Under the pieces are notes generated by a model that saw nothing but the letters and a program-made list of their open reading frames with translations, did no database searches and had not been told where the DNA came from. Positions 10,837 to 58,132 of a stretch of DNA of 64,000 nt are shown piece after piece. The DNA comes from Rosistilla carotiformis (GTDB lineage Bacteria; Planctomycetota; Planctomycetia; Pirellulales; Pirellulaceae), in NCBI RefSeq assembly GCF_007753095.1, contig NZ_CP036348.1:62001-126000 (forward strand). The letters are read 5' to 3'. The translations under genes were made by a program, and so were the position numbers. Each line of letters starts with the position of its first letter. The first letter of the stretch is position 1.

Positions 10837-13800
10837 TCAGACCGATGGGGTTGGAGTGGGATTGTTGGCCTCGCGAAGTCGAGACGAGGGGGACTGAAAG
10901 GAATAGAGGACGGGGATGACAAATAGCGTCAGGGCGGTCGCAAACGTAAGACCATAGATGAGCAACCAGGCTAAGCCTTGCCACAGTGGGCCGCCGGCAA
11001 GGGCGAGAGGAACGAGGCCGCCCACGGTGGTCGCGGTTGTCAGGAAGATCGGCATCAGTCGTTGCCGGGCAGCGTCGACGATGGCAGCATGATATTCGCT
11101 GCGTGTCAGAGGCCGATCCTTCTCGGTCGATGTTTGCTCCACGACGATGTCGGCAAATTCGACGAACAGGATCGCCGAATTCAATACGATTCCGAACAAC
11201 GCCAACACGCCAAGCTGCGGCATGAATCCAAACGCATTGTTGGTTACCCAAAGACCAAACAGAGCGCCGACAAGGGCAAGCGGCAAGGTCACCATGATGA
11301 TCGAAGTGCGGGAGAGACTGTTGAATTGAAAAATCAACAACAGAACGATTGCAATAAATGACATGCCAAACGACCGGAACATTTTCCCTTGAGCCTTCAT
11401 CGACTCTTCAAGAGCCCCGCCGATCTCGATGCGAAATCCGGGAGGCAATTCGGCCTTCACCTGCTCCATCGCCTCGCAATGGAAGACGCGATTGGTGATG
11501 TCGTTGCCCGACGCGCCGTAGTTGATCCGCGATCGGACTTCGATCGTTCGGTTTCCGTCGCGTCGATCGATCGTTTCCAAACGCCATTGCGGTTCGACGT
11601 TTGCAATCGCTGCCAGTGAAACCTTGCCGACGCGGCTTTCGATGTGAGAGCTGTTGACGGCGCCAAGCGACTGGCGGCTCTCGGGCTTCAATCGAAAGTA
11701 AACCGGGATTTGTCGGTCTCCCTCGCGATACATCGTCAGCAGTTTGCCGGAGTAATAAGCGTCGAGCGTTGACGCTACCTCCGCGTTGCGAATTCCCGAA
11801 AGGCTCGCTCGATCGGAATCGACATCGACGAACAACTGCTGGCCGGAGACGCCCCACGAATCGTTGACGTCCCACGTGTCCGGCTCGGCGTCCACGATCG
11901 ACTTGACGCGGTTGGCGATGCGTCGCAGTTCGTTTGCGTCGGCAAGCCCATTACCCACGACCCGCAAAACGACGGGATCCGCGGGGGGGCCAAGCGCCAA
12001 CTCGATCGGAACCACTCGGGCGCCAGCGATCGGCGAAAGCCCTAACTCTTCGTCTCCCTGCCGCGCAACAACTCGCAATTGTTCGGAAAAGTCGTGGGTA
12101 AACTCCCCCTTGGTCGTGTGGATCAGGATTTCGGCGTAGTTGGGCTTCAGCGATTCGGGTTCCCATGTCAGGTACCAGCGCGATCCACCTCCGCCGACGA
12201 TGGTGCGCATGTTGAGCAGTCGTTGATGCGAGTTCCCTTCGGCATCGACATAGGGGCTGAGCGCGCGGATCATCTCTTCCACTTTGCGCGCAGCGCGATT
12301 GGTTTGTTCAATCGAAGCCGATTCGGGTAAATAGATTTCAACGGCAAATTGGTCGCGCTGCGTCAGCGGAAAAAACTCGCTCGAAACGGGCAACTGCGTC
12401 GCAAGCACCAACGTGCCGAAGGAGGCGAAAATGGTGACAAACCGGTGACGCAGCGCCCAAGCGACGGCGCTGCCGTAGATCTGATAGAAGCCGCCGCGAG
12501 CTGGTCCCGTTTGGAGAGGCGCCGCATCTGCTTGCTTTCTGCGAAGACCACGCCACGCGGTTCCAAGCTTATCCATCAGCCACGGCAGCGGCGCGGAGGG
12601 GCGAGACGGGTCGCGCGGCGGACGAATGAACCACGCGGCAAGAATCACGCAGAAGGTCATCGCCAGCAGCCAGCTGACCGCCAGCATGACGGACAACGTG
12701 ATCGGCAGGCTGTAGATGAACTCGCGGTTGGCACCATCCATCGCAATCAACATCGGGATAAAGGCGGCAACCGTCGTCGCGGTTCCGCTCAGCATCGACG
12801 GTCCAAGCATTTTGGCTCCGGCGACCGATGCATCGCGAGGATTCATGCCGGCGATTTGGTTCGTGCGACTCTGGTCGCATACCTGAACCGCATTGTCGAC
12901 CAGCAAGCCAAGCGAGATGATCATCGAGGCCAACGACATCTGTTCCAGCTGGACATCAAAAAGGGTGATGATCGCCAGCGACGCAATGACAACAAACGGG
13001 ATGTTGGCCGCCATGACGGCCGCCGTGCGAAATCCGACAACCAAATAGACCAGGACCACAACAACAAGAATCGCCTGGGCGATGTTCTCGCCGACTTCGC
13101 GAATGCGTTGCTTCACACTGTCCGATTGATCGGAAATGATCGACACCGACAGATCGGGCGGCAACACCCCAGTGCTTTGCAGCTGGGCGACGCTTTCCTT
13201 GGAACGGTCGCATATGTCGATGATGTTCGCGCCCGACTTCATCGATACCGCCAGGATGATCGTGGGCGTCTCAAGGTCGGGCGTTCCGTAGCGGCAAATC
13301 TGCTGGGGCGGGTCGGTGTAGCCGCGCCGAACGTTTAACCCCATGCTTCGGAGTTGGACCTGGTTTACCGCGGCATTGCCAGCTTCGTCTCCGGTCTCCA
13401 CGACACCAACGACCAACGAATCAAACGCCTCCACCGCGCTGGCGTCACCGCTGGGTTTGACAAAAAAGCGTCCATCTTCGCCGTCGATCTTTCCACCGGG
13501 AGCCACGATGTTTTGCGACTGGGCGAGTCCTTCGATTTGATCGGTTGTCAATTCGAGCGTCGACCAATTCCCCTCGTCCGTCTCGATGTAGATCGCTTCT
13601 TCCTGCACTCCGAAGCGACTGACCAACGAGACACCGGGCAGCAGCCGCAGCGAATCGCGTATGCGTTCAGAAAACAGATCGAGCTGCCGTGGCGAGTAGG
13701 CGTATTGCGGGTCGATGAACGAATCGCCGTCGAGCGGTCGCTGGTGGACCGCGTACAGCAAGACGCTGGTGTCCGAAAACTCGTCGAACAGATAGGGCGA

Positions 13801-50351: not shown

Positions 50352-52025
50352 CTAGTTCGGCGTAGCCAATTGTTCTGCACCGCCGGCGATGATCACTTCG
50401 GGGGTTTCCCGATCTCCGCTGGCGATTTCGTCGAGGAACATCTGCACGCCCAGCGGTGGTGGGATCAGAGTCAGCCCGCGCGCCGTGAGATGCTTTTCCA
50501 GGTCGGCGACCATGCCGATCTCCGCCCACGGTCCCCAAGCGACCGCGAAGGTCCGGGTTTGCGGCCAGGCTTGGTTCAGCGTGCAGGCGACTTTGCCCAA
50601 GACCTCGTTCGCCGCCGCGTAGTCGCTCTGCCCGCGGTTGCCAAATCGGCTGGCAACCGAAGCAAACAGGGCGAGGAACTTCAATTGGTTGGGGGCGATC
50701 GCATCGATCAGCCCCGCCGTGCTGTGGACCTTGGTGTTGAAGACGCGGTCGAACGAATCGGGAGTCTTGTCGCGCAACAGCTTGTCTTCGATCACTCCCG
50801 CGCCGTGGACCACTCCGGCGATCTGCCCGTATTCGGCTTGGATGTTCTGCAGCATCGTGGCAAACGATTCGCGATCCGAGACGTCGACCGATCGATAGTC
50901 GGCATGACCTCCGACCTGCCGGATTCGATCCAACGTTTGCCGGATCTCGCGAGCTGCCATGATGCGATTTGCTTGGCGTCCGATCTCGGCCGGTTTGGGC
51001 GTTTCGCCTCGCGTTTTGGCCAGCTGGATCAGGGCGGATTTCAGTTCGACGTCGCTGGTCGCCGCAGTGATCTCCGCCGGTTCAACCTGTTCGGGCAATT
51101 GAGACCGTCCCAGCAAAACCAGTTGCGATTGGTACTTCTTCGCCAGGCCGACCGCCATCTCGGCGGTGATCCCTCGGGCGCCACCGGTCATCACGATCAC
51201 TTCGCCAGGTTCCAGAACCAGCTTGTCTTCGCTGGCCGGATCGATCGTCGCAGCGATCGGTTCCCAGGTGATCCGGCCTGCGCTGCTGACACCAATTTCC
51301 AGCGGTCCGGTCGACTGGCCCAGTTCCGCCGCGATGGCATCAAACGTCGTCGAGGTGTTCATTTCGGGGGAGATATCGACGGCGCGAACCAAGACGTCGG
51401 GCCATTCCAGTCCGATGCATTTGACCAGACCCAAGATACCGCCATGGGCAGCGCGAGCGATTGGTTGGTCGGCCGACGTGCCGTAGCCGAGTCGTCCGTC
51501 GATGGCGGTGGCTGCCAGCAGGACCGCGCTGCCGTTCTGAGCCGCTTCGGTCAGGTCGGCTTCCATCGCTCGAGCCAACAGGTACAGCGATCGACAATCG
51601 CGTCGAGCGCGATTGACAAGCGTGTCGGTGTCGCTGAACTGCGACAGAGGCGACAGATGGATCAGGCCGGCCAAGGCGTCGTGATGCTGACGCAGGGCTG
51701 GGATCAGAGCATCGATCACTGCGGCGTCGCTGAGATCGGCTTCGATCACATCGTCGAGCGTCGACAAGTCCAACGGTTTGCCGTCGACATGACGCAGCAG
51801 AACGGTTGGATGGTCGAACATGTCAAAACGTTCGACGACTTTGTTGGCGATCCCGCGGTCGTCGCAGGTGATAACCACGGTTCCGGCGGGCAAGATCCCA
51901 GCACCCAGGTTGCTGCCCAGCGGCGCGGGGATCAACCGCACGCCGCCTCGCGAAATCGGAATCGTTCCGTCGTCGACAGCCTCTGCGGCTGCCGGTTCAG
52001 CGGGCGCGGTGGGCGTTGGTTCCAC
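50352..52025 (-). CDS. Ketoreductase part of the polyketide synthase, in a shifted reading frame
   Basis: The frame encodes 557 residues with a PfaA-type ketoreductase. A structural subdomain comes first (about 35-280: GTVVITCDDRGIANKVVERF and later AHGGILGLVKCIGLEWPDV). The catalytic SDR domain follows with VIVMTGGARGITAEMAVGLA, GVVHGAGV, the active Ser in ASVASRFGN and the Tyr in SDYAAANEVLG. The first residues are an Ala/Pro linker. The only possible own start is a GTG at 52025 without a ribosome binding site, 62 bases after the stop of the upstream frame. The open frame runs further upstream through that stop into the A10 run at 52100-52109, and its linker-like composition continues there. 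Translation as a fusion with the 52088-58132 protein is therefore more plausible. Confidence 0.8.
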   Translation of the reverse strand: MEPTPTAPAEPAAAEAVDDGTIPISRGGVRLIPAPLGSNLGAGILPAGTVVITCDDRGIANKVVERFDMFDHPTVLLRHVDGKPLDLSTLDDVIEADLSDAAVIDALIPALRQHHDALAGLIHLSPLSQFSDTDTLVNRARRDCRSLYLLARAMEADLTEAAQNGSAVLLAATAIDGRLGYGTSADQPIARAAHGGILGLVKCIGLEWPDVLVRAVDISPEMNTSTTFDAIAAELGQSTGPLEIGVSSAGRITWEPIAATIDPASEDKLVLEPGEVIVMTGGARGITAEMAVGLAKKYQSQLVLLGRSQLPEQVEPAEITAATSDVELKSALIQLAKTRGETPKPAEIGRQANRIMAAREIRQTLDRIRQVGGHADYRSVDVSDRESFATMLQNIQAEYGQIAGVVHGAGVIEDKLLRDKTPDSFDRVFNTKVHSTAGLIDAIAPNQLKFLALFASVASRFGNRGQSDYAAANEVLGKVACTLNQAWPQTRTFAVAWGPWAEIGMVADLEKHLTARGLTLIPPPLGVQMFLDEIASGDRETPEVIIAGGAEQLATPN

Positions 52026-52087
52026 AGCGGCCGCGGGTTCAGCAACGGCTTCGGGATCAGCGGTTTCGACTGCCGCGTCGGCCTGCG

Positions 52088-55000
52088 CTACGACTTCACT
52101 TTTTTTTTTGCGTCGTCGCTGAAGATCGCTTCTTCGAGATAGTCGACGATTCCTTGCAGCGTGCGAAGCGTCGTCAATTTCTCAAGTTCCAGCGTATCTT
52201 GCAGGTCTTCGCCATCGCCAGCGAGCTGCAGGACTTCGGCGAGGTTCCCCAGGATTTCGACTCGTTTGATCGAATCGATTCCGAGATCGCCTTCGAGGTC
52301 CGCTTCCATGTCGAGCATGTCGACCGGATATCCGGTGCGGTCGGCGACCAGTTCCAGCAGCGCTTCTTCGGCTTGTTGAATCGACGCGGGAGCCGCTTGA
52401 CCGTTGTCGGTCGGCGCGGCGGCGGCGGGCTGGGCAACCGCGGGCGTTGCGGCAGCAGGCGTTGGCGCGGCGGGAGTCGGTTCCGGTGCAGCGGTTGGCG
52501 CCGGTGCGGGAGCGGGAGCTGCGGCAGTTGGCGGTGCCGCGGCGACTGGTGCGGCAGCAGGAACCGCGGGTGCTGGCTTCGCTGCGTGGCCGTTTTCGCC
52601 GTTGTGGCTGATCGCCGCGTAGGTTGGCTGCGGTCGCTGAGCGATCTGCGGTTGAGCCGCTTGTGGGAGCATGCCGTTGTCGGCTTCGGGAGCTTCCCCT
52701 TGCAGGTAGGTGACCATCACATCGCGTTGCGTTTGCAAGAACTGACGCATCAGTTGTTGGTAGCCAAGCATCACGGCTGTCGCTTCGTCATGATAAGCGG
52801 CAGCAGGTGCTTGAGCCGATCCGTTGGTTTCTTGTGGAAGACGATTCGTAGCGGAGGATGTTCGTTGCATGGTGTTTTGATCAGATGGAACAACGGGAGT
52901 TGGAGCTGTCGGTTTTTGCGGCCGCTGTGGCGCGGCGGATGCTGCTGGCGGCAGCGGCTTCGTTTGACGAGGTTTTTGTGGTGGGACTTGTTGTGGTTTT
53001 TGCAGCTCCGCTGCGGCGGCAATCGGTTTTGCCGTTGCCGCAGCCGCCGATGGTTTGGCGGCGGGTTCCTGTTTCGCAGGTTGGCCGTTTCCAGTGGCGG
53101 CCGGCCGAGGTTTGTCGGCGTCGGGATGACGCTGCCCCAGATAATGTTTTTCCGGTTCGTTGATCGGGCGGTTCCGCATTCCGTTGACCATCCATGCGTT
53201 CTTAGGATAGTCGGGATGGCCGATCTGTGAATTCAATTTTCGCAGGTCGATGCGTTGCGGAGCGCGTGCGGCGAACAGGGCCGAAGGCCGGATCCCGTCG
53301 ACACCCGCGGTGATCAAGCGGCCCAAGGTGTGAACCAGTTGAGTCAGCGAATCGCGACCGCGTCGATCGATCGAGACGGCGGTGTGCGGGTGGCCTTGCA
53401 GCGTTTGCCCGACCAGACCGGTCAACGCGCTGCCGGGGCCGACTTCGATAAACGTTCGCACGCCGTCGGCGTACATCGCGGCAACCTGTTGGCGGAAGCG
53501 AACCGGCGATGCGAGGTGCGACTTGAGCGTGGCCAGCATCTCTGCCGGAGCGGCCGGATGTTTGGCGGCGGTTGTGTTGCTGTAGACCGTTCGCTGTGGA
53601 GCTTTCCATGCGAGCGACTCGAGCTTCTCGGCAAATGCGATTCCAGCGGCGGCGACTTGCGGTGAATGGAAGGCACACGAGACGTCCAGTTTGACGACTC
53701 GCATTCCGGCGGCCGTCAGTTTTTCGATCGCGCTGTCGACCGCTGCGATCGGACCGGAGATCACGATCTGCTGCGGCGAGTTGTCGTTGGCGATCGTGAT
53801 CGCTTCGGCTAATCCGGCGGCGGATAGCTCCTTTTGAATCGTGGCTGCGTCGGCGGAAACCGCCGCCATCGCTCCGGCAAAACCGCCATCGGGCTGCGGT
53901 TGAGCGGCCGATCGCATCGCGTCGCCACGCGCCGCGGCAAGACTCAATAGATCGTCGTACGTCAACGCTTCGGCGGCTGCCACGGCGACTAGTTCGCCAA
54001 AGCTGTGACCGCCGACGACATCGGCGCGAATCCCCAACGCATCGATCACTTGCAGCGCGGCCCACGATGTGGCGGCGAGTGCAGGTTGAGCGACCGCGGT
54101 GTCGGCCAAGGCCTTGCGGTTGGCATCGCGATCGGCGTCGGTGAACGGCGATGGTGGATAGATCAGTTGAGCAAATCGACTGGCAAAATGTTCGTCGTAG
54201 ACCGCGGCGGCATGATCGACCGCGGCGTGTGCTGCGGGGAAGGCGAGCAGCAGTTCGGCGAGCATGTCGGGATATTGTGCCCCTTGTCCAGGGAACAGCA
54301 ACGCGACTTTGCCCGCGGTCTCGGGTTCGATCTCGGCGAGGTAGATGCCGCGTGGATCGGAGATCGCCAACGGCGTCGCTTCACATTTTTCGATCGCGAT
54401 CGCCAGATGATCGGTCAGCTGGCCCAGGTCCTTGGCAACGATTGCCGCCACACATCCCGAGGCGGTTGTCTTTTCAAAGGCGTCGGCCAGCGAAGCTGCC
54501 AATTCGGGCAGTTCCGGCATCACGCCGGCGGCCAGCCAGGCATGGATCCGCGTCAGTTCGGTTCGCAACGCGGCGGGATTGGCTGCGCGCCAGACCAGCA
54601 GTTCGGCGGGCCAGTGTGCGCGAGCGACCTCGGGCGGATTAGCGAAGTCTTCGGTGTATTCTTCCAAGACCAAGTGGACGTTGGTTCCGCCAAATCCGAA
54701 CGCGCTGACTCCGGCGCGACGTGGGTGATCTTCGCCGTTGATCCAGGGACGCGTCTCGGTGTTCAGGTACAGCCCGGTGTTGGGGAAGTCGATCGCCGGG
54801 CTGGGCGTTTCGACGAGCGTCGGCGGCAGGGTCTTGGTGTGCAAGGCCATCGCGGCTTTGATCAGCCCCGCGACGCCGGCGGCACACTTGCTGTGACCGA
54901 TCATCGATTTGACGCTGCCGATCGCAACTGACTGACGGCGGGCTCCCGATTCGTCCAAGACGGTCGCCACGGAGGTCGCTTCGGTCCGATCGCCGACGAC

Positions 55001-58000
55001 GGTACCGGTTCCGTGGGCTTCGACCAAACCGATCGATGATGGTTCGACGCGGGCTTGTTCGTAGGCGCGTCGCAGGGCGCGGATCTGTCCGGTGGCGTTG
55101 GGGGCGGTCAGCCCTTTGTCCTTGCCATCGCTACTGCTGCCGATGCCGCGGATGACTGCGTAGATCTTGTCGCCGTCGCGCTCGGCATCCGCCAAACGCT
55201 TCAGCATCACGATGCCAAGGCCTTCGCTGAGCACGATCCCGTCGGCTTCGGCGTCGAACGGCCGGCAGCGTCCCTGCGGCGAGAGGGCGTGCGTTTTGCT
55301 GAAGGCCATAAAGGCGTAAGGCGTTTGCACGGTGTCGGCACCCATCGCAAACGCGACGTCGGTGGTTCCCAGTTGCAATTCGCGGATGCAGGCGTGGACG
55401 GCGGCCAGCGACGAGGCGCAGGCGGCGTCCAGGGCGTAGTTCGATCCGCCGAGGTTAAATCGGTTGGCGACGCGGCCGACGGCGACGTTCATCAAAATCC
55501 CGGGGAACGAATCTTCGGTCCATTCGGGCAGATGGTTTTTCACCGCGTCGTAGATCGCTTGGCCGCCGATCGGCAGTTCGGGAGCGGTTTCGATGATCGG
55601 CAACGAGCTGCGGATGCCATACATCACGCCCATCGGGCTGCCACCGCCGCCGATGCCCAGCACCGCACATGCTGTTTCGCGGTTGAACGGTCGGCGATCG
55701 TAACCGCCATCGGCCAGCGTTCGCTTCATCGATTCCAGCAGCAACAATTGCAGCGGTTCGATCGACGCGATACTCCGCGGCGTGATCCCGTATTCGAACG
55801 GATTGAAGACTTGGTCGGTCAGGAAGCCGCCCCATTTGCTGACGATCTTATCGGGAGCTCGCGGGTCGGGATCGTAGAACAACGTCCAGTCCCAGTGCGA
55901 GTCGCGAGGGACCTCGGTGACGGCGTAGTGCTTGTTAAGGATGTTCTCCCAGTACTGCGCCAGTTCGTTGCCGCCGGGATACATCGCACTCATCCCAACG
56001 ATCGCGATATCGCAGGGGGGCGGAGCGTCGACCGAATCGGTGAAGCTGGGTTTGGGAGCGACGTTCAAATTCGCCGAGGCTTGTTGCAGTCGCTGCGTTC
56101 CGGTCTGGCTGACATCGGCGTGCAGTTGGCCGATCGTCGTCACGCTGTCGCGGAGCGCGGCGACTTGGCCGACCATGTACATTCCGCGTTCGTATTGCTT
56201 GTCGCTGGAGACGTTTTCCAGTTTGCTTTTGCCACCATCGCTGGGCGTCGATCGCTCGATTCCCTTGCTGGCGACGCGCAGCCGCCCGATATTCATCCAT
56301 TCCAGTTCGCGTGTGATCTCGTCGGCTGTTTTGCCTTCGCCAGCCAGACGTCGCCGCTCGCGATCGAACAGGTCGCGGTAAGGGGTTCGGATGCAGCGGA
56401 TCGCGTGGCCGGGACCGGTTTCCAGAAGGACGGTGTCGTGGCTGCGGATCGCTTCCTCTTGAAAGCGTGGCACGATCGCGCCGGCTTCGACAGCTTCTTT
56501 GGTGAACAGATAGGCCGAGCCCATCAGCACGCCAACTTTGGCGCCCAGTTGCGACAGGCGTCCGGCGACCGATGTTGCCATCGCGGCGGAGAGGCCGTCG
56601 TGGATGCCGCCGGCGAACAGCAGATGCAGCTTGGCGACTTCTCTGGGGTTCTTCTTGGCAAATGCTTCGAGCACGACCAGCAAGCTTTCCCACAGCACGA
56701 AGCTGCTGCGCGGTCCGACGTGTCCGCCGCACTCGCGGCCTTCGAAGACGAACCGCCGTGCATCGTCGCGGAGGAACATTTCCAGCAGCCCCGGCGAGGG
56801 AGCGTGCAGGTAGGTTGGGATGTCGAGCGCTTCGAGTTCTTTGGCTTGGTCGGGACGCCCGCCTGCGATCAGGGCAACCGGTGGCCGGTGCTCTCGAATC
56901 GCAGCGATCTGTTCGTTGCGGATCTCTGGCGGCAGGAAGCCCAGCAGGCCGGCGCCCCATCCGCGATCGCCCAGCTTGGCTCGCGTGGCTGCCAGGATTT
57001 TGGAGGCTTCGGGGCCGCGCATCAGAGCCAGCGCGATCAACGGCAGGCCTCCTTCGCTGGCGACCGCTTCGGCAAACTCCGCCGTATCGCTGACTCGCGT
57101 CATCGGTCCCTGAACGATTGGCAACCCGATGCCGTGGCTGGCGGCGAGCGGTCCGTCGGCGTCCAACGGATTCACTTCGGCTGCCGCTTGGATGTTCTCA
57201 CGCGATTGATCGATGATGGCGGTGACGGTGCCGCGAACGTCGACGCAGCGCTGGGCCAGCCCCGCGGCAAAGGCGAGGTCTTGGCCGGCGATCAAGACGC
57301 GCGGGTCATCGTTTGCGGCGACTGCTTGTTCGACGCCGTCGGTCCAGGCTTGTGCAAACGATTGGTCGGGGGCGGATTCCTGTTTGGCCAACAGGTTCAG
57401 TTCGAGTTCGCGCAGTTGTTGTACGAGTCCCGCGCTTGGCGGCGCGGCAAATCGGAAGCATCGCCCCAACGCTTCGCCCAACAAATGAGTTTGGCTGCCG
57501 TCGTAGGATCGGACCCAGGTGGCGGCTGCGGTGGAGAGTGGCGATGCCTGGGCCAAGAGAACCTGAGAATCGATGACGACGCCGCGAGCGCCGGCTGCTT
57601 CGCAAGCTGCGGCGGTGTGTGGGCCGATTCCACCTTGGGCGTAGGCGGGCAGACGCTGGCGAGTCGCGTCGTCCAATCGGGCCCAACGCTGCAGCAGCAA
57701 GAAGGTGGTTTCGCTGGCGACCCAGCCTCCCGCTTCGTTCCCCTTGAGGATCACGCCATCCAGCGGCAGGCCGATCGCTTCTTGAAGCGTCTCGCTGTGC
57801 GTGATCTCTGCCAGCAATCGAACGTCGTTGCCGAGCAGACTGCGCAGTGTCGCGACTCGTTGGGTTGTGATCTCGCCGGCCAGGATCACCGCATCGAGCT
57901 GAGCCGCATGTTGGGCTAAACGTTCGACATGCCGTGATTTGGTGTTTTGATCGATGCGCGCGGCGAACGGATTGTTCGTAAACCGCGCTAGACGATCGAT

Positions 58001-58132
58001 CGACGCGCTGATCGATGTGTGGTTCCAGGCGAAATCGAGCGTCCCGATCGCGCCAGCGCGGCAGGCGGCAATAGCGAGATCGATCGATGCGAGACGAGGT
58101 ACGGTGGCAACAAAAATATCAGTCGGGAGCAT
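52088..58132 (-). CDS. PUFA-synthase-like type I polyketide synthase: tandem NMO-like, KS, AT, ACP
   Basis: The 2014-residue protein is a large modular synthase. Residues about 1-250 and 320-640 are two TIM-barrel domains of the nitronate monooxygenase type (the fold of PfaD enoyl reductases): AQGGIGPHTAAACEAAGARG in the first, GRECGGHVGPRSS and LLFAGGIHDGLSAAMATSVA in the second. Residues about 705-1150 are a ketosynthase with active Cys in DAACASSLAAV (near 900) and His in EAHGTGT and IGHSKCAAG. About 1290-1600 is an acyltransferase (LFPGQGAQYPDML, GHSFGE near 1375). A Pro/Ala-rich stretch leads to one ACP with LGIDSIKRVEIL near 1954, the PfaA-type site for phosphopantetheine. No dehydratase is seen. 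The frame stops three codons after an A10 run, and the ketoreductase lies in the -1 frame downstream. Confidence 0.9.
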   Translation of the reverse strand: MLPTDIFVATVPRLASIDLAIAACRAGAIGTLDFAWNHTSISASIDRLARFTNNPFAARIDQNTKSRHVERLAQHAAQLDAVILAGEITTQRVATLRSLLGNDVRLLAEITHSETLQEAIGLPLDGVILKGNEAGGWVASETTFLLLQRWARLDDATRQRLPAYAQGGIGPHTAAACEAAGARGVVIDSQVLLAQASPLSTAAATWVRSYDGSQTHLLGEALGRCFRFAAPPSAGLVQQLRELELNLLAKQESAPDQSFAQAWTDGVEQAVAANDDPRVLIAGQDLAFAAGLAQRCVDVRGTVTAIIDQSRENIQAAAEVNPLDADGPLAASHGIGLPIVQGPMTRVSDTAEFAEAVASEGGLPLIALALMRGPEASKILAATRAKLGDRGWGAGLLGFLPPEIRNEQIAAIREHRPPVALIAGGRPDQAKELEALDIPTYLHAPSPGLLEMFLRDDARRFVFEGRECGGHVGPRSSFVLWESLLVVLEAFAKKNPREVAKLHLLFAGGIHDGLSAAMATSVAGRLSQLGAKVGVLMGSAYLFTKEAVEAGAIVPRFQEEAIRSHDTVLLETGPGHAIRCIRTPYRDLFDRERRRLAGEGKTADEITRELEWMNIGRLRVASKGIERSTPSDGGKSKLENVSSDKQYERGMYMVGQVAALRDSVTTIGQLHADVSQTGTQRLQQASANLNVAPKPSFTDSVDAPPPCDIAIVGMSAMYPGGNELAQYWENILNKHYAVTEVPRDSHWDWTLFYDPDPRAPDKIVSKWGGFLTDQVFNPFEYGITPRSIASIEPLQLLLLESMKRTLADGGYDRRPFNRETACAVLGIGGGGSPMGVMYGIRSSLPIIETAPELPIGGQAIYDAVKNHLPEWTEDSFPGILMNVAVGRVANRFNLGGSNYALDAACASSLAAVHACIRELQLGTTDVAFAMGADTVQTPYAFMAFSKTHALSPQGRCRPFDAEADGIVLSEGLGIVMLKRLADAERDGDKIYAVIRGIGSSSDGKDKGLTAPNATGQIRALRRAYEQARVEPSSIGLVEAHGTGTVVGDRTEATSVATVLDESGARRQSVAIGSVKSMIGHSKCAAGVAGLIKAAMALHTKTLPPTLVETPSPAIDFPNTGLYLNTETRPWINGEDHPRRAGVSAFGFGGTNVHLVLEEYTEDFANPPEVARAHWPAELLVWRAANPAALRTELTRIHAWLAAGVMPELPELAASLADAFEKTTASGCVAAIVAKDLGQLTDHLAIAIEKCEATPLAISDPRGIYLAEIEPETAGKVALLFPGQGAQYPDMLAELLLAFPAAHAAVDHAAAVYDEHFASRFAQLIYPPSPFTDADRDANRKALADTAVAQPALAATSWAALQVIDALGIRADVVGGHSFGELVAVAAAEALTYDDLLSLAAARGDAMRSAAQPQPDGGFAGAMAAVSADAATIQKELSAAGLAEAITIANDNSPQQIVISGPIAAVDSAIEKLTAAGMRVVKLDVSCAFHSPQVAAAGIAFAEKLESLAWKAPQRTVYSNTTAAKHPAAPAEMLATLKSHLASPVRFRQQVAAMYADGVRTFIEVGPGSALTGLVGQTLQGHPHTAVSIDRRGRDSLTQLVHTLGRLITAGVDGIRPSALFAARAPQRIDLRKLNSQIGHPDYPKNAWMVNGMRNRPINEPEKHYLGQRHPDADKPRPAATGNGQPAKQEPAAKPSAAAATAKPIAAAAELQKPQQVPPQKPRQTKPLPPAASAAPQRPQKPTAPTPVVPSDQNTMQRTSSATNRLPQETNGSAQAPAAAYHDEATAVMLGYQQLMRQFLQTQRDVMVTYLQGEAPEADNGMLPQAAQPQIAQRPQPTYAAISHNGENGHAAKPAPAVPAAAPVAAAPPTAAAPAPAPAPTAAPEPTPAAPTPAAATPAVAQPAAAAPTDNGQAAPASIQQAEEALLELVADRTGYPVDMLDMEADLEGDLGIDSIKRVEILGNLAEVLQLAGDGEDLQDTLELEKLTTLRTLQGIVDYLEEAIFSDDAKKKVKS
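52100..52109 (-). other. A10 slippage site linking the two polyketide synthase frames
   Basis: On the coding (minus) strand ten A residues occupy codons GCA AAA AAA AAA. In frame, V-K-S and a TAG stop follow at 52088-52090. If the ribosome slips back one base, or the transcript gains one A, reading continues through S-E-V-V-A-Q-A-D-A-A-V-E directly into the ketoreductase frame without a stop. The run contains the slippery heptamer A-AAA-AAA in the correct phase. Whether the shift is programmed, a mutation or an assembly error cannot be decided here. Confidence 0.75.

What the first reader, a model, noticed from the sequence alone, without database searches (positions are those of the whole stretch)
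52026..52111. A10 run separates the polyketide synthase from its ketoreductase by one frame
Seen: the KS-AT-ACP frame stops at 52088 just after ten A residues, while the ketoreductase frame is open through that stop and joins in the -1 frame. The joined peptide would be an Ala/Pro/Glu linker typical of spaces between synthase domains, and the only internal start (GTG, 52025) has no ribosome binding site. Known: runs of nine or more A cause transcriptional slippage, and A-AAA-AAA is a -1 ribosomal slippery site. Inference: slippage may set a ratio of ACP-terminated to full-length synthase. A plain frameshift or assembly error would look the same.
Basis: partly seen in the sequence, partly recalled or inferred. 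Interest (0 to 1): 0.75.

Follow-up and report, generated by a model that had tools for sequence, protein, structure and literature searches.

The report
Slippery A-run joins synthase to ketoreductase
A run of ten A's sits exactly where a polyketide synthase gene switches reading frame before its ketoreductase, and similar runs sit at the same joint in related bacteria, which suggests that the cell uses stuttering during gene reading to make both a short and a full-length enzyme.

Summary
An A10 run (52100-52109, minus strand) separates an NMO-KS-AT-ACP frame (stop TAG, 52088-52090) from a ketoreductase (KR) frame that joins in the -1 sense. It is not a one-off slip: both other held genomes of the genus keep the identical A10, the same stop and the same split. 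Fused one-frame homologs exist elsewhere. Of 58 KR loci examined from the family and order, 36 show an ACP motif; 23 of these 36 carry a run of 9-11 A's 49-88 residues after the ACP serine, and none of the 36 has another sense-strand A run or T run of 9 or more. In 18 the run is in frame with stops close by in both other frames. In 5 the gene is split, always in the -1 sense. The own genome has only four A10 runs; all lie between domains of multidomain genes and are kept in both sister species. One is dnaX, the textbook slippage gene. Most likely the run is a conserved slippage site (probably RNA polymerase, possibly ribosome) that yields an ACP-terminated and a full-length synthase. No RNA or protein data were available. 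A systematic undercall of A11, or a separate KR start (GTG 51941 has GAGG just upstream), is not excluded.

The parts
52100..52109 (-). A10 run at the frame junction (proposed slippage site); frame 0 = GCA AAA AAA AAA GTG AAG TCG TAG
   Evidence: identical in both congeners
52088..58132 (-). First frame: synthase with NMO (enoyl-reductase-like), KS, AT and ACP, 2014 aa, ends TAG 52088-52090
52139..52366 (-). ACP (PF00550, residues 1923-1998)
50352..52181 (-). Second frame (open stop to stop), -1 relative to the first: linker plus ketoreductase
50520..51197 (-). KR domain (PF08659, residues 304-529 of the KR-frame translation)
52026..52099 (-). Ala/Pro/Glu linker between the A10 and GTG 52025, open in the KR frame in 3 of 3 congeners, no indels
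51939..51941 (-). Alternative GTG start with GAGG about 5 nt upstream (rival: separate KR start)
52023..52025 (-).

Best explanation
The A10 is a conserved programmed slippage site. During transcription RNA polymerase stutters on the run and some mRNAs carry an added A (A11 reading), which joins the ACP frame to the KR frame. mRNAs with ten A's end at TAG, the fourth codon after the run. The cell therefore makes two enzymes from one gene: an NMO-KS-AT-ACP protein without ketoreductase and a 2593-residue protein with it. Shown: the sequence anatomy; conservation of run, stop and split in the genus; recurrence of the run at the same joint in other synthases, mostly in the mirror-image arrangement (full length by default, short form by slippage). 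Inferred: that slippage happens, that it is mainly transcriptional, that both products work and that their ratio matters.
For: (1) Run, TAG and split identical in 3 of 3 held genus genomes, while dS over the synthase is 0.16-0.18. (2) Homologs outside the genus are one frame: G033 (two copies), G037, G056. (3) 23 of 36 KR loci with an ACP motif (58 loci examined; 22 had no motif in the stretch) have A10 (21), A9 (1) or A11 (1) 49-88 aa after the ACP Ser; 18 in frame, 5 split, all 5 in the -1 sense. No other sense-strand A run or T run of 9 or more in the 158 kb of those 36 loci. (4) After the 18 in-frame runs the farther of the two off-frame stops lies at a median of 7 codons, against 38 at 12,790 control codons of the same ORFs. 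(5) A quick tree of 33 KR rows needs 3 changes of the run trait, at least 2 forced by starred branches; 16 of 16 rows of one clade keep it. (6) The own genome has 4 A10 runs and none longer, about 18 of 10 or more expected from window shuffles scaled up; all 4 lie between domains of genes and are kept in both sisters. One is dnaX; 25 of 29 parsed dnaX loci, the genus's three included, have A9 or A10 there. (7) The linker between the run and GTG 52025 has no indel and dN/dS about 0.5-0.7 in the KR frame for G000 against each congener; dN exceeds dS in the other two frames. (8) Published precedents: A11 tssM1 of Citrobacter rodentium (PMC4256274, abstract); poly-A cassettes shifting 10, 40 and 63% with 7, 9 and 11 A's (PMC3711429, section 19 part 1).
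Against: No RNA, protein or read data. 13 of the 36 ACP-bearing loci have no run, among them the homologs G009, G033 copy a, G037 and G056. No A11 or longer occurs in any of the three genus genomes, so a systematic undercall of a true A11 cannot be ruled out there. The linker signal is small (9 of 17 variable sites in third position). GTG 51941 with GAGG could start a separate KR. Rows are related, so counts overstate independence. The 26 codons just before the run show no synonymous change, but 59 of 1986 windows of that size (that one included) show none either, so this adds little.
Confidence: 0.82

Rival explanations
1. Ribosomal -1 frameshifting on A AAA AAA rather than polymerase slippage makes the full-length enzyme (a variant of the best explanation, which leaves the source of the slip open in part).
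For: The run holds the heptamer A AAA AAA in the right frame; all 5 split synthases need the -1 sense; E. coli dnaX works this way (PMC5009743 section 21).
Against: No notable structure downstream of the run in 3 of 3 congeners (z 1.3 to -1.4, 0.9 to 0.2). No ribosome-site-like stimulator seen by eye in the 30 nt upstream. tRNA-Lys with CUU and with UUU anticodon are both present, the state that the review links to polymerase slippage in Thermus. Runs occur in all three phases in dnaX, though A9-A10 offers a heptamer in any phase.
Confidence: 0.22
2. The KR is a separate protein started inside the mRNA (GTG 51941 or GTG 52025); the A10 is incidental.
For: GAGG about 5 nt before GTG 51941, kept in congeners; the start falls close to where homology to fused KRs begins.
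Against: The GAGG lies in codons for Arg-Gly, which 3 of 5 homologs outside the genus share at that place (the other 2 have Arg-Ala). It leaves unexplained why the run is kept and why runs sit at this joint in 23 of 36 loci, 18 of them in one frame.
Confidence: 0.1
3. Assembly error: the true run is A11 in all three genus genomes and the gene is one frame.
For: The split has the -1 sense expected from one missed A; the three genomes contain no run over A10 and may share a sequencing method (unknown here).
Against: Other A10 calls in the same three genomes keep long frames open: dnaX 3 of 3, aminotransferase gene 3 of 3, ThuA gene 2 of 3. Splits at such runs also occur in assemblies of 110-440 contigs of other genera (G238, G003, G187, G007, G021). 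Even an A11 would be a slippage-prone run at the joint.
Confidence: 0.1
4. Contingency locus: the run changes length in DNA and switches the KR on and off (phase variation), or the gene is decaying.
For: G187 has A9 (split) where four congeners with near-identical flanks have A10 (in frame).
Against: Length is 10 in 21 of 23 runs and in 3 of 3 in the genus; KR body dN is 0.005-0.013 against dS 0.14-0.20, so it is not decaying; the same device is in dnaX, a replication gene.
Confidence: 0.08

Closest known systems
Citrobacter rodentium tssM1 (transcriptional frameshifting on A11; PMC4256274, abstract and outline seen)
   Same: Stop soon after a poly-A run, second domain in the next frame, two length variants whose ratio matters there.
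   Different: Secretion protein, run of 11; tested at the bench. Here a polyketide synthase, untested.
dnaX tau/gamma slippage (Thermus thermophilus; two-ORF poly-A dnaX of PMC3711429 section 19 part 1; review PMC5009743 section 21)
   Same: A-run of 9-10 in an interdomain linker, nearby stops, short and long product; both polarities known.
   Different: Clamp loader, not a biosynthetic megasynthase. The window's own genome has a dnaX with A10 as well.
Poly-A frameshift magnesium chelatase genes (PMC3711429 section 19 part 1)
   Same: -1 sense, poly-A run, fused one-frame homologs exist, measured 10-63% shifting in reporter cassettes.
   Different: Different gene; the part read does not separate polymerase from ribosome for it.
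PfaA-type synthases (TIGR02813)
   Same: Best NCBIfam match for both frames; KS-AT-ACP-KR order.
   Different: First frame scores 793.6 and second 291.4 against a cut-off of 1010.1; one ACP found by Pfam, NMO at the N terminus; split frame.

Membership tests
Programmed transcriptional realignment (poly-A slippage) | Run of 9 or more A's on the sense strand at the frame transition | tested here: met
   A10 at 52100-52109
[quoted passage not shown]
   3 of 3 held genus genomes; also G238 and G187
Programmed transcriptional realignment (poly-A slippage) | Products of the two frames are one protein in other species | tested here: met
   G033 (two copies), G037, G056 in one frame
Programmed transcriptional realignment (poly-A slippage) | mRNA length heterogeneity at the run | not testable with these tools
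   no RNA data
Programmed transcriptional realignment (poly-A slippage) | Two protein products | not testable with these tools
   no protein data
E. coli dnaX-type -1 ribosomal frameshifting | Slippery heptamer in frame | tested here: met
   A AAA AAA within the run
E. coli dnaX-type -1 ribosomal frameshifting | Downstream stem-loop (feature recalled) | tested here: not met
   no low z-score in 3 congeners
E. coli dnaX-type -1 ribosomal frameshifting | Upstream ribosome-site-like stimulator (feature recalled) | tested here: inconclusive
   none seen by eye in 30 nt upstream
PfaA (TIGR02813) | Score above the curated cut-off | tested here: not met
   793.6 and 291.4 against 1010.1 for the two frames apart; the joined protein was not scanned

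The most novel reading that the evidence does not exclude
In this bacterial family, poly-A slippage is an old, exchangeable joint in biosynthetic megasynthases. An A10 between ACP and KR sets the ratio of reductase-bearing to reductase-free synthase, and the default product can flip between short and long by one nucleotide without loss of either. The same device serves dnaX, ACP-aminotransferase-thioesterase/condensation proteins and a 3-keto-disaccharide-hydrolase-like/ThuA/DUF7133 multidomain protein.
Probability: 0.6. Interest if true: 0.87.

Novelty: new member of a known kind. Interest (0 to 1): 0.78.

Why it matters
Genome annotation would call this gene broken or two genes, and cluster prediction would miss the reductive step. 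If slippage works here, one synthase gene yields two catalytically different enzymes at a ratio set by a homopolymer. I saw this kind of control described for no polyketide synthase in the listings of my paper searches; the library is open-licence only, and most listed papers were not opened. The mirror-image arrangements in related genera make the idea directly testable.

Tried and rejected
Downstream RNA structure as stimulator: no signal in the synthase; in 25 dnaX loci the mean z was -0.71 downstream and +0.42 upstream. A hairpin directly 5' of the A10 of the aminotransferase gene (8 bp in G000 and G001, altered in G002; z -2.6, -2.2, -0.5) is not shared by the synthase.

Synonymous constraint upstream of the run: not unusual.

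Strand test: of 143 distinct A10 sites gathered (one search lists 140 in 40 genomes; a few near-identical ones merge, six come from outside), 38 have coding on both sides on the A strand and 1 on the T strand. The six (L123, L131, L132, L133, L153, L154) entered through homology searches, not the pattern search. Lysine runs are, by recall, commoner than phenylalanine runs in proteins, so the asymmetry is no clean control. A stricter first version gave 17 A-strand sites and no T-strand site.

Rows dropped before the count: L350 (starts inside the KR), the weak SDR-type loci L017-L030 (L017-L027 were scanned: one A8, no longer run), and matches for which no locus was fetched.

Errors of mine, corrected: I first noted that the fused homologs have no run (from, which did not cover the second G033 copy); one search shows an in-frame A10 in G033 copy b. 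I first noted that the ThuA-gene run is limited to the genus; searches show it split in G003, G021 and G007 too.

Naming the organism: two scans of genome contigs found nothing. A first tRNA pattern gave no tRNA in the 10 loci scanned; later loci did.

Full report
What was claimed and what is there. The window carries T10 at 52100-52109, i.e. A10 on the minus strand, the only A/T run of 9 or more in 64 kb. The first frame (52088-58132, 2014 aa) has NMO, KS, AT and ACP domains, and the second frame has a KR domain. Frame 0 stops at TAG 52088-52090, and the KR frame is open from 52181 to 50352. Reading one A twice joins the frames into 2593 aa. One detail is incomplete: besides GTG 52025 there is a GTG at 51941 with GAGG about 5 nt upstream.

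Is it an error or a decayed gene? The genus has three held genomes. All three carry the same A10, the same TAG and the same split. Over the synthase dS is 0.16-0.18 and dN 0.013-0.020; over the KR body dS is 0.14-0.20 and dN 0.005-0.013, so both halves are under selection. The 78 nt between run and GTG 52025 have no indel and no stop in the KR frame in 3 of 3; dN/dS there is about 0.5-0.7 for G000 against each congener, and dN exceeds dS in the other two frames, but only 17 sites vary and 9 are third positions, which is weak. Outside the genus four long homologs (G033 twice, G037, G056) are one frame of 2532-2649 aa.

Homopolymer control in the same genomes. G000 holds exactly four A10 runs and none longer. 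A dinucleotide shuffle of the window scaled to the genome predicts about 18 runs of 10 or more (window composition only). All four lie between domains of multidomain genes and are present in both sister species: this synthase; an ACP-aminotransferase-thioesterase protein; dnaX; and a 3-keto-disaccharide-hydrolase-like/ThuA/NPCBM/DUF7133 protein. Of the 12 exact A9 runs in G000, 2 were found at the same place as A9 or A10 in a sister. dnaX (3 of 3) and the aminotransferase gene (3 of 3) are open through their A10, the ThuA gene in 2 of 3, so A10 calls in these assemblies usually keep the frame. This does not exclude that a true A11 was called A10 in the synthase.

dnaX as an internal control. 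The own dnaX passes TIGR02397 (422.5 against 250). Of 30 dnaX loci fetched from the best matches among 60 genomes (the genus's three included), 29 were parsed, and 25 of these have A9 or A10 340-391 residues after the Walker motif; the other four list no A run of 8 or more. Thermus dnaX slips on such a run (PMC5009743 section 21), and two-ORF dnaX genes with 10 A's are described (PMC3711429 section 19 part 1).

The joint itself. I searched 241 genomes of the family with the KR (66 had a match at 1e-30) and looked at 58 KR loci, some of them from other families of the order. In 36 an ACP motif lies in the stretch held; 23 of these have A10 (21), A9 (G187) or A11 (G200) 49-88 residues after the ACP serine. 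In the 158 kb of those 36 loci no other sense-strand A run or T run of 9 or more exists. Eighteen are in frame; both other frames then stop soon (farther stop at a median of 7 codons against 38 at control codons; related rows are counted separately). Five are split: G000, G001, G002, G238 and G187, all in the -1 sense. G187 has A9 where four congeners with near-identical flanks (G185, G186, G190, G196) have A10 in frame, so one nucleotide flips the default product. A quick tree of 33 of the 36 rows (3 gave no tblastn match) needs three changes of the trait, at least two forced by starred branches, and 16 of 16 rows of one clade carry it (the program warned of long branches, and rows were not thinned for relatedness). 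Thirteen of the 36 ACP-bearing loci have no run.

Other genes. In 143 distinct A10 sites gathered from relatives, 39 have coding on both sides of one strand: 29 in frame and 9 split on the A strand, 1 in frame on the T strand. By loci and coordinates, 37 of the 38 A-strand sites belong to four kinds of gene (dnaX 20, ThuA-type 10, aminotransferase 4, ACP|KR synthase 3); the last (L339) is unidentified. The ThuA-type gene is split at its A10 in G002, G003, G021 and G007, and at a second joint in G014 and G019, all in the -1 sense; a ThuA/GDSL/DUF7133 relative in G012 is split in the other sense, and so is L339. The 16 homologs of the ThuA gene outside the genus that one search scanned list no A run of 8 or more in the part scanned; one search did not cover homologs matched in pieces, nor the second joint. 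The aminotransferase run recurs in G029 before a thioesterase-like stretch and in G026 before a condensation domain, but not in G028 or G012.

Mechanism. Both polymerase slippage and -1 ribosomal shifting can use A10. No notable downstream structure was found, and both tRNA-Lys isoacceptors are present, as in Thermus. I therefore favour transcriptional slippage, at about three to one. Published precedents give the expected size: cassettes with 7, 9 and 11 A's shifted 10, 40 and 63% (PMC3711429 section 19 part 1), and an A11 before the stop of tssM1 gives two variants whose ratio is needed (PMC4256274 abstract). That the ratio of KR-bearing to KR-free synthase matters here is inference.

Standing. 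The mechanism class is known; a polyketide synthase using it was not seen in the listings of the searches made, which cover an open-licence library only. No call names the organism; that it is a planctomycete is my recall from its gene families.

Noticed in passing
L034/L041/L036 (G000, G001, G002), L153 (G029), L154 (G026): ACP-aminotransferase protein with A10 just after the aminotransferase; next domain is a thioesterase in the genus and, in G026, a condensation domain. In G000 and G001 an 8-bp hairpin lies directly 5' of the run.
   Followed up: partly
L039, L241, L242, L243, L244, L245, L246: ThuA-containing multidomain genes split into two frames at A10 runs at domain joints in several genera (G002, G003, G021, G007, G014, G019, G012).
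   Followed up: partly
L120-L149: dnaX in 25 of 29 parsed loci carries A9 or A10 after domain III, in all three codon phases.
   Followed up: partly
L357 (G187) against L359, L360, L361, L366: A natural A9/A10 length difference at the ACP|KR joint turns an in-frame synthase into a split one.
   Followed up: partly
L033 (G002): Ten C's directly followed by ten A's, not classed as coding by my scan.
   Followed up: no
L339 (G016): Weak candidate for another A10 split gene, +1 sense, function unknown.
   Followed up: no
L094, L114, L035: A9/A10 tract of variable length just before what looks by eye like a terminator hairpin, at the same place in all three genus genomes.
   Followed up: no
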